A stretch of DNA of 47,642 bases, from contig NZ_CADEFI010000028.1 of the NCBI RefSeq assembly GCF_902826555.1, positions 1 through 47,642 on the forward strand, written 5' to 3'. The position numbers were made by a program, and so were the translations under genes. Shown here piece by piece: positions 38,559 to 41,879 of this stretch (position 1 is the first letter of the stretch; each line of letters starts with the position of its first letter). The notes under the pieces were generated by a model that did no database searches, was not told the DNA's origin, and saw nothing but the letters and a program-made list of their open reading frames with translations. This DNA comes from an uncultured Hyphomicrobium sp. (GTDB lineage Bacteria > Pseudomonadota > Alphaproteobacteria > Rhizobiales > Hyphomicrobiaceae).

Positions 38559-38966
38559 ATGCGCACCTTTCTTTCCGGCCTGGTCCTGCTCTGCACATGC
38601 GCAGCGCACCCCGCCGCCGCGGACGACGCCATCGACTGCACCAACGCCAGCACCACGGTGGAAATGAATTTCTGCTCGGACAAGGACTTCAAGGCGGCCG
38701 ACGCCAAGCTCAATGCCGTCTATCAAAAGGTGCTGGCGCAGATCGCCACGTCGGGCCTCGAAAAGCCGTACGATTCGCAGAGCTGGGAGGCGGCCATGCG
38801 GGAGGCGCAGCGGGCGTGGGTGGCGTTCCGCGACGCGGATTGCAAAGGTGTCGTGCCGATGGAATGGTCGGGTGGAACAGGCACCAGCTCGGCGGTGTCC
38901 GGCTGCATGACGCAAAAGACGGAAGAGCGCATCAAGGAACTCAGCGAGCGCTACGACCCAAAATAG
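38559..38966 (+). CDS. LprI-like exported protein (DUF1311)
   Basis: A 135-residue periplasmic protein. The signal peptide ends PAAA. The mature part DCTNASTTVEMNFCSDKDFK, then ADAKLNAVYQKVLAQI, and LREAQ-type helix WEAAMREAQRAWVAFRDADC are the hallmark of the lysozyme inhibitor LprI N-terminal family (DUF1311), with cysteines positioned for disulphides. Inhibition of lysozyme is documented for the mycobacterial LprI; other members are uncharacterised, so the activity here is inferred. It is convergent with the His-rich gene, with a stem-loop in between. Confidence 0.9.
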   Translation: MRTFLSGLVLLCTCAAHPAAADDAIDCTNASTTVEMNFCSDKDFKAADAKLNAVYQKVLAQIATSGLEKPYDSQSWEAAMREAQRAWVAFRDADCKGVVPMEWSGGTGTSSAVSGCMTQKTEERIKELSERYDPK

Positions 38967-41159: not shown

Positions 41160-41780
41160 CTATCTGTTTCCCGGGTCGGGAGCGCCGAGGTTCGCGACCG
41201 TGGTGCCCTTGCCCGCAAGGAAGACGCCGACGCAGTGCCCAAGCTCGGTTTGCACGAGCCAGACGTGGTCCTGGAACGTCTGCTGCGCCAATTCCCCTCC
41301 CGGGGCGACGCGTGCGTACTCCTTGCGGTCTCCAGCGTAGTCAATCCAGAAGACGACGCGGAGGCCATCGGAGGCGTTGACGAACTTCAACGTTGCCGCC
41401 GCCTCCGAGACTGGCGACTGCAGCGACGGGACATCGCCACACGGGACGGACCGGGCCGGCGTCAGGGCGCTCCCAGCGCTTTCGCCAGAAGCGGGGCCAG
41501 TCTGCCGGGCCTTGAGCTTTTGGATTTCGGCGCGGGCCACGCTGGCGTAAAAGCCACCCGGAAACTGGGCGAGAAATCCGTTCCAACTCTCGACGGTGCC
41601 GGTTGCCTTTGCGGTGTCGAATGCCCGTTGCTCGGCGGCGGGCCCCGTGCTTACGGGAGCATCCTGCGCGGCCGCCGGCGGCGGCAGAAGCGTCGACTGG
41701 GACGTGCCATTGGGCGTGCCCATGACCAGTGCAGCACAGGCCACGGCAGCGACTTTGGCGATGTCGAAAAAGACGGACAT
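41160..41780 (-). CDS. Exported protein with von Hippel-Lindau beta-type domain
   Basis: A 206-residue protein. The hydrophobic N-terminus (VAAVACAALVMG) suggests export. A helical repeat-like segment at residues 53-92 (FDTAKATGTVESWNGFLAQF) resembles the short solenoid units found beside bacterial signalling domains. Residues 118-192 match the beta domain of VHL: VNASDG, FWIDYAG, EYARVAPGG and DHVWLV. Aligned without gaps to human VHL 88-117, W145, Y155, H172 and W174 fall on W88, Y98, H115 and W117, and T168 on S111. These are the hydroxyproline-pocket positions. GGAGG precedes the ATG. The gene lies downstream of the RDD gene on the same strand. The ligand is unknown. Confidence 0.82.
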   Translation of the reverse strand: MSVFFDIAKVAAVACAALVMGTPNGTSQSTLLPPPAAAQDAPVSTGPAAEQRAFDTAKATGTVESWNGFLAQFPGGFYASVARAEIQKLKARQTGPASGESAGSALTPARSVPCGDVPSLQSPVSEAAATLKFVNASDGLRVVFWIDYAGDRKEYARVAPGGELAQQTFQDHVWLVQTELGHCVGVFLAGKGTTVANLGAPDPGNR

Positions 41781-41879
41781 CCTGAAACCTCCGCCTGAAA
41801 ATGAGTTGGATATAAAAAGGGATCATCGCTCCGTGGGCGGGCGACGGTCAAGCGACGGGCGGGAAGCCAGGGATCGCGC

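What the first reader, a model, noticed from the sequence alone, without database searches (positions are those of the whole stretch)
41160..41780. Bacterial exported protein with a VHL beta domain that keeps the hydroxyproline pocket
Residues 145-174 align without any gap to human VHL 88-117. Four of the five residues that line the hydroxyproline pocket (W88, Y98, H115, W117) are identical, and the fifth (S111) is Thr. Flanking marks agree too (W-I-D-Y-x-G versus W-L-N-F-x-G, then P-G, then H-V-W-L versus H-L-W-L). VHL is known as the oxygen-dependent receptor for hydroxylated HIF. A VHL-like domain behind a signal sequence in an alphaproteobacterium raises the question of what it binds in the periplasm, perhaps hydroxyproline-containing host or bacterial peptides. 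The alignment is seen directly; the binding is inferred. VHL-like domains in bacteria may already be listed in domain databases, but I know of no described function.
Basis: partly seen in the sequence, partly recalled or inferred. Interest (0 to 1): 0.7.

Follow-up and report, generated by a model that had tools for sequence, protein, structure and literature searches.

The report
Exported bacterial VHL-type pocket protein
A bacterium carries a gene for a small, probably exported protein with the same binding domain, and the same hydroxyproline-gripping pocket, as the human tumour suppressor VHL; related bacterial proteins keep that pocket too, so it probably still binds something similar outside the cell, but what it binds is untested.

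Summary
ORF 41780-41160 (-), 206 aa, passes the Pfam cut-off for the VHL beta domain (25.4 versus 21 bits) and aligns without a gap to human VHL, with W88, Y98, Thr for S111, H115 and W117. An AlphaFold2 model retrieves pVHL entries in all 50 PDB rows shown. In all 60 domains of a 297-genome survey of the order, W88 and Ser/Thr111 are kept in 60, H115 in 58, W117 in 58, Y98 in 44. Two cyanobacterial plasmid proteins keep all five. Unlike pVHL, this protein has no alpha domain; the bacterial domains share a Cys pair and lie in probably exported proteins. I read it as an envelope or surface module whose pocket binds a hydroxylated, probably hydroxyproline-like, ligand. The ligand is inference: VHL-bearing genomes are not enriched in PF13640 oxygenases or PF05544 epimerases, so any hydroxyproline may be foreign. 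Pfam's model already recognises such proteins and one paper describes a bacterial case; my searches found no study of the pocket in bacteria.

The parts
41160..41780 (-). Gene for the 206-aa probably exported VHL-beta-domain protein (P0001)
   Evidence: ORF from ATG to stop; Pfam hit
41788..41792 (-). GGAGG ribosome-binding-like motif 7 bases before the ATG
   Evidence: read from the sequence
41709..41780 (-). Signal-sequence-like N-terminus (residues 1-24): Lys then a hydrophobic stretch
   Evidence: read by eye; low-confidence region in the model; inferred
41502..41642 (-). Helical module, residues 47-93, recurrent in other proteins of the family
   Evidence: helices 47-60, 63-72, 77-93 in the model; shared with another protein of the same genome and with relatives
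41187..41441 (-). VHL beta domain, residues 114-198
   Evidence: Pfam PF01847 at 41253-41420; seven strands from 128 to 197, block means of pLDDT above 90 for 111-190 and 88 for 191-200; Foldseek pVHL
41346..41348 (-). Pocket W145 (human W88)
   Evidence: W in 60 of 60 domains
41316..41318 (-). Pocket Y155 (human Y98)
   Evidence: Y in 44 of 60 domains, F in 4
41277..41279 (-). Pocket T168 (human S111)
   Evidence: T in 53, S in 7 of 60 domains
41265..41267 (-). Pocket H172 (human H115)
   Evidence: H in 58 of 60 domains, N in 2
41259..41261 (-). Pocket W174 (human W117)
   Evidence: W in 58 of 60 domains, F in 2
41439..41441 (-). C114, first of a conserved Cys pair
   Evidence: C in 47 of the 48 domains (of 60) with a residue in this column; disulfide inferred
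41232..41234 (-). C183, second of the Cys pair
   Evidence: C in 59 of 60 domains; disulfide inferred

Best explanation
The gene encodes a probably exported envelope or surface protein of a Hyphomicrobiaceae bacterium: signal-like N-terminus, a helical module, then a VHL beta domain closed by a probable disulfide (shown: sequence, profile match, predicted model; inferred: export, disulfide). The domain keeps the pocket that in human VHL holds 4-hydroxyproline: two Trp and a Tyr as walls, Thr and His to grip the hydroxyl (shown by homology and conservation, not by a solved structure). It most likely acts as a binding module that captures a hydroxylated, proline-like group on a peptide or glycoprotein outside the cytoplasm, probably of foreign origin such as plant, algal or animal hydroxyproline-rich material (inferred). 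It has no alpha domain, so it should not work as an Elongin-dependent ubiquitin-ligase receptor.
For: PF01847 over the cut-off. Predicted fold = pVHL (second model from a relative: TMq 0.64-0.72, 29-36% identity). Pocket conservation in all 60 matches of the order survey: W88 60, S/T111 60, H115 58, W117 58, Y98 44. By entropy these rank 1 (W88), 15 (Y98), 8 (S111), 5 (H115) and 6 (W117) of 85 positions; rank-sum permutation p 2e-5 in 200,000 draws. Position 111 only exchanges Thr and Ser, so a hydroxyl is kept. The hydroxyproline OH bonds to S111 and H115 and its carbonyl to Y98 in human VHL (PMC9528729, passages). Hydrophobic residues lining the peptide groove are also fairly conserved (F76, L101, aromatic at 112). 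All five pocket residues are present in 9 of 12 domains outside the order (by eye) and in 2 of 2 cyanobacterial plasmid proteins read. VHL shares a protein with SH3_3 in L046 and with LprI in L058, and an SH3-like domain stands in place of VHL in one related scaffold.
Against: No binding was measured. VHL-positive genomes are not enriched in PF13640 (25 of 53 versus 92 of 244, p 0.22) or PF05544 (28 of 53 versus 131 of 244, p 1.0). The own genome lacks PF05544, PF13661 and collagen repeats. Y98, which binds the ligand's carbonyl, is lost in 16 of 60 (4 of them Phe). Polar flank contacts of human VHL vary: columns of N67, R69, R107 and H110 rank 75, 47, 51 and 41 of 85, although H110 acts through its backbone. 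The domains were found with a VHL profile, which favours conserved columns. AlphaFold2 may have seen pVHL in training. In L058 the VHL match itself is just under the cut-off (20.3 versus 21).
Confidence: 0.45

Rival explanations
1. The pocket is a true binding site but its ligand is not hydroxyproline: for example a sugar, a peptidoglycan stem peptide or another hydroxylated compound of the bacterium's own envelope.
For: Aromatic walls plus Thr and His also suit sugars (general knowledge, no call). Fusion to SH3_3 (L046) and LprI (L058), and an SH3-like domain in place of VHL in one scaffold, point to the envelope. No statistical link to PF13640 or PF05544 and no collagen repeat in the own genome. 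Y98 is variable.
Against: The residues that recognise the 4-hydroxyl in human VHL are the ones kept, also in two cyanobacterial proteins.
Confidence: 0.35
2. The conserved residues hold the fold together and the domain is a structural spacer without a ligand.
For: Other highly conserved positions are reported as structural in human VHL: S65 and N78 (PMC6464237, passages); G93 is kept in 59 of 60. Trp residues are often conserved for packing (general knowledge).
Against: T/S111 and H115 bind ligand in human VHL and are kept in 60 and 58 of 60. Metazoan VHLs conserve the same residues as a binding pocket (PMC6650433, passages).
Confidence: 0.15
3. The protein is a eukaryote-derived mimic that acts on a host's HIF pathway.
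For: The closest bacterial domain in the set has 37% identity to human VHL over 75 aligned positions.
Against: Found in 53 of 297 genomes of the order with varied architectures, and the second copy of this genome has gene order shared with four Hyphomicrobium loci. No alpha domain. The window protein itself has only 22.7% identity to human VHL, and the human branch is unplaced in the tree, so descent is not excluded by the tree.
Confidence: 0.03

Closest known systems
Human pVHL (von Hippel-Lindau tumour suppressor), beta domain
   Same: Predicted fold; ungapped register over about 60 residues; W88, Y98, H115, W117 identical and S111 as Thr
   Different: No alpha domain; probably exported; conserved Cys pair; polar flank columns N67, R69, R107 and H110 vary; human I109 is Gln in 35 of 60 bacterial domains
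Litorilituus sediminis EMK97_00595 (PMC9002001)
   Same: Bacterial protein with a VHL beta domain that the paper predicts to be secreted
   Different: The paper (abstract, Results section and passages seen) proposes tumour suppression. A term search of its text found one mention of hydroxyproline, in the Introduction, and none of Trp117 or His115. Its sequence was not compared here
Bacterial SH3_3 modules (PF08239)
   Same: An SH3-like domain occupies the place of VHL in a scaffold with the same helical module and Cys-rich tail
   Different: Different fold; the SH3_3 match in that scaffold protein is below the Pfam cut-off (18.7 versus 27 bits)

Membership tests
Pfam PF01847 VHL beta domain | Score above the curated cut-off | tested here: met
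   25.4 bits, cut-off 21
Pfam PF01847 VHL beta domain | VHL beta-sandwich fold | tested here: met
   Predicted model retrieves pVHL entries in all 50 PDB rows shown, of 75 with E up to 0.001; a prediction, not a solved structure
pVHL orthologue (Elongin/Cullin-2 substrate receptor) | Alpha domain that binds Elongin C after the beta domain | tested here: not met
   The chain ends 9 residues after the last strand and the model has no helix there
pVHL orthologue (Elongin/Cullin-2 substrate receptor) | Hydroxyproline pocket W88, Y98, S111, H115, W117 | tested here: met
   W, Y, T, H, W at 145, 155, 168, 172, 174, with Thr for Ser; sequence only, geometry not measured
Hydroxyproline receptor | Binds 4-hydroxyproline but not proline | not testable with these tools
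   needs a binding assay
Oxygen-sensing PHD/VHL pair | A prolyl hydroxylase partner in the same genome | tested here: inconclusive
   One PF13640 hit, beside what looks like a TonB-dependent receptor; PF13661 none; PF05118 none but its controls were silent. Other oxygenase families were not searched
Exported protein | Signal peptide | tested here: inconclusive
   Hydrophobic N-terminus by eye; a loose screen for a hydrophobic 11-mer anywhere before the domain passes 65 of 67 proteins (some loci twice) and has no control

The most novel reading that the evidence does not exclude
Bacteria have long used the VHL beta domain as an extracytoplasmic hydroxyproline receptor; the oxygen-sensing VHL of animals is a later, intracellular use of the same pocket, coupled to the ubiquitin machinery by adding the alpha domain.
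Probability: 0.25. Interest if true: 0.87.

Novelty: new variant of a known kind. Interest (0 to 1): 0.6.

Why it matters
VHL is the best-studied reader of hydroxyproline and the basis of animal oxygen sensing and of many PROTAC drugs (general knowledge; PMC9528729, passages). Existing VHL inhibitors and peptides offer a ready assay.

Tried and rejected
Search for a functional partner: PF13640 and PF05544 co-occurrence were null. In the neighbourhoods of 38 named loci, called with a crude ORF finder that also picks antisense frames, no gene cluster reached more than 4 loci. The clusters of 3 or 4 were within related genomes, plus one small exported domain beside VHL in L042, L044, L052 and L054. 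The window gene and a VHL gene of G124 both lie downstream of an ABC-F gene, and in L121 an ABC-F gene lies nearby in the opposite direction; no function follows. One tblastn of phage records and one pattern scan of viral contigs found no relative.

Idea that the C-terminal FGPE-like tail of many relatives folds into the pocket: the second model leaves the tail end disordered. Inconclusive, and the window protein lacks the tail.

Tree with human VHL: 96 rows, few columns, human branch length 2.36, place unresolved (33/81), so no statement on direction of descent. The second-look structural aligner was not available and no model coordinates were released, so pocket geometry was not measured.

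Homology of this protein alone to human VHL is weak (E 0.04; 22.7% identity); the case rests on the profile and the family. One search used the pattern H[PIV]WM, so loci L040-L077 cannot serve for H115/W117 statistics; the counts use only the 60 profile hits. One search read minus-strand loci in the wrong direction; redid them.

Full report
What was checked. The ORF 41780-41160 on the minus strand encodes 206 residues and starts 7 bases after a GGAGG motif. Pfam finds one family up to E 10: PF01847, VHL beta domain, residues 121-176, 25.4 bits against a cut-off of 21. NCBIfam finds nothing. VHL fills the 24 best rows of the PDB sequence search, but at best E 0.04. The host is taken as Hyphomicrobiaceae because contigs of two genomes of its family, G001 and G220, have the lengths of named Hyphomicrobium and Filomicrobium records.

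Fold. An AlphaFold2 model from an alignment of this protein and 38 bacterial loci has block means of pLDDT above 90 for residues 111-190, seven strands between 128 and 197, and three helices at 47-93. Foldseek against the PDB shows pVHL entries in all 50 rows printed (75 have E up to 0.001), E down to 8.8e-8, rmsd 1.0-2.9 over 86-98 columns. A second model, of the Nitratireductor domain, also gives only pVHL entries in 50 rows, TM-score by query length 0.64-0.72, 29-36% identity. A profile of 27 bacterial domains finds human VHL at E 1.3e-10 over 60 ungapped positions; the next sequences, xylanases, are at E 0.15 or worse. AlphaFold2 may remember pVHL; the profile result does not depend on that.

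Family. The own genome has two copies; the second, on contig 27, has a Cys-rich tail and lies by a dxs-like gene. PF01847 occurs in 53 of 297 genomes of the order, 7 of 385 of a class sample, 7 of 398 of a phylum sample, each counting the own genome, in 1 of 78 of the class of G504, and in 0 of 14 control genomes. The samples overlap and are drawn by relatedness, so these are not world frequencies. tblastn of plasmid records gave three matches: Nostoc, Calothrix and Jannaschia. The first two are small proteins annotated as hypothetical, with signal-like N-termini by eye; the third was not read.

Pocket. In all 60 matches, aligned: W88 60, S/T111 60 (53 Thr, 7 Ser), H115 58, W117 58, Y98 44 (plus 4 Phe). 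All five are present in 43 of 60; W-x-[ST]-H-W in 57 of 60 (from the exceptions listed). Of 85 domain positions ranked by entropy, W88 is 1, H115 5, W117 6, S111 8 and Y98 15; a random set of five is as low with p 2e-5 in 200,000 draws. The other top positions include the Cys pair, G93, N78, F76 and S65; S65 and N78 are reported as structural in human VHL (PMC6464237, passages). According to PMC9528729 (passages) the hydroxyproline site is formed by W88, Y98, H110, S111, H115 and W117, with the hydroxyl bound by S111 and H115 and the carbonyl by Y98. Metazoan VHLs conserve the pocket almost invariably (PMC6650433, passages). Around the site the picture is mixed. Polar contacts vary: columns of N67, R69, R107 and H110 rank 75, 47, 51 and 41, though H110 acts through its backbone. 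Hydrophobic neighbours are kept better: F76 in 52 of 59, Leu/Ile/Val at 101 in 60 of 60, Phe or Tyr at 112 in 53 of 60. Read by eye, 9 of 12 domains outside the order keep all five; L034, L037 and L039 lack Y98, and L039 also W117. Some of these 12 are close relatives of each other. The profile used to find the domains favours conserved columns; matches with broken pockets were still found (L102, L104, L106).

Differences from pVHL. There is no alpha domain: 9 residues follow the last strand. C114 and C183 are kept in 47 of 48 and 59 of 60 domains, which together with hydrophobic N-termini suggests an exported, disulfide-closed domain; both are inferences. Architectures vary: alone, behind a helical module as here, or behind unnamed exported domains. 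In the 10 proteins scanned, VHL shares a chain with SH3_3 in L046 (40.3 bits, cut-off 27) and in L077 (25.5, under the cut-off), and with LprI in L058 (31.5, cut-off 22; there VHL itself is 20.3, just under its 21) and in L077 (20.3, under the cut-off). In this genome another protein has the same helical module and Cys-rich tail as a VHL protein of G090, with an SH3-like domain in place of VHL (42% identity overall; SH3_3 18.7 bits, under its cut-off). The VHL domain thus looks like an exchangeable module of envelope proteins; that is an inference from few cases.

What it binds. If the ligand were made by the cell, a hydroxylase might be expected with it. PF13640 is in 25 of 53 VHL-positive and 92 of 244 VHL-negative genomes (E up to 0.001). 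In the own genome the single PF13640 protein lies after what looks like a TonB-dependent receptor; I take it for a PiuC-like enzyme from recall and context. PF13661 and collagen repeats are not found there; PF05118 is not found but its controls were silent; other oxygenase families were not searched. PF05544 shows no association (28 of 53 versus 131 of 244) and is not found in the own genome. A foreign hydroxyproline-bearing ligand, or a different hydroxylated ligand, therefore remains. The hydroxyl kept at position 111 and His at 115 speak for a hydroxylated ligand; loss of Y98 in 16 of 60 speaks against a strict hydroxyproline peptide in all of them.

Neighbourhood. In the window the gene follows an RDD-family gene and an ABC-F-like gene in the same direction. 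In G124 a tandem VHL gene also lies downstream of an ABC-F gene, with other ORFs between. This does not indicate function.

Known or new. Pfam's model already recognises such proteins. PMC9002001 (abstract, Results and passages seen) describes one from Litorilituus sediminis and proposes tumour-suppressor activity. My nine paper searches brought up no study of the pocket in bacteria; the library holds open-licence papers only. PMC4848768 was opened for the pocket residues and did not contain the terms. A Toxoplasma paper listed for PF01847 did not contain the term in its main text.

Verdict. The binding claim is plausible but untested. I class it as a new variant of a known kind.

Noticed in passing
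L142:7680-8624 (G000 contig 27, minus strand): Second VHL protein of the same genome, 314 aa with a Cys-rich tail, between a dxs-like and a histone-deacetylase-like gene (names by eye); both neighbours recur in four Hyphomicrobium loci, L060, L063, L064, L065.
   Followed up: partly
L139:929-1786: Own-genome protein with the same helical module and Cys-rich tail as a VHL protein of G090, but an SH3-like domain in place of VHL.
   Followed up: yes
C-termini of loci such as L041, L042, L044-L046, L048, L051, L052, L055: FGPE-like C-terminal tail in 24 of 67 proteins read (some loci twice); its end is disordered in the model; function unknown.
   Followed up: partly
L117:1408-2358: Tandem VHL domains in one protein of G124; the first has a broken pocket (W-N-T-H-F), the second is intact.
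   Followed up: no
L041:3518-4288; genes next to VHL in L042, L044, L052, L054: A small exported domain with a DDWSVYL-like motif (by eye) is fused to VHL in L041; a related gene lies beside VHL in four other loci.
   Followed up: no
window 38559-38966, plus strand: LprI family protein (PF07007, E 1e-26) about 2.2 kb from the VHL gene; LprI also shares a protein with VHL in L058 and, below Pfam's cut-off, in L077.
   Followed up: partly
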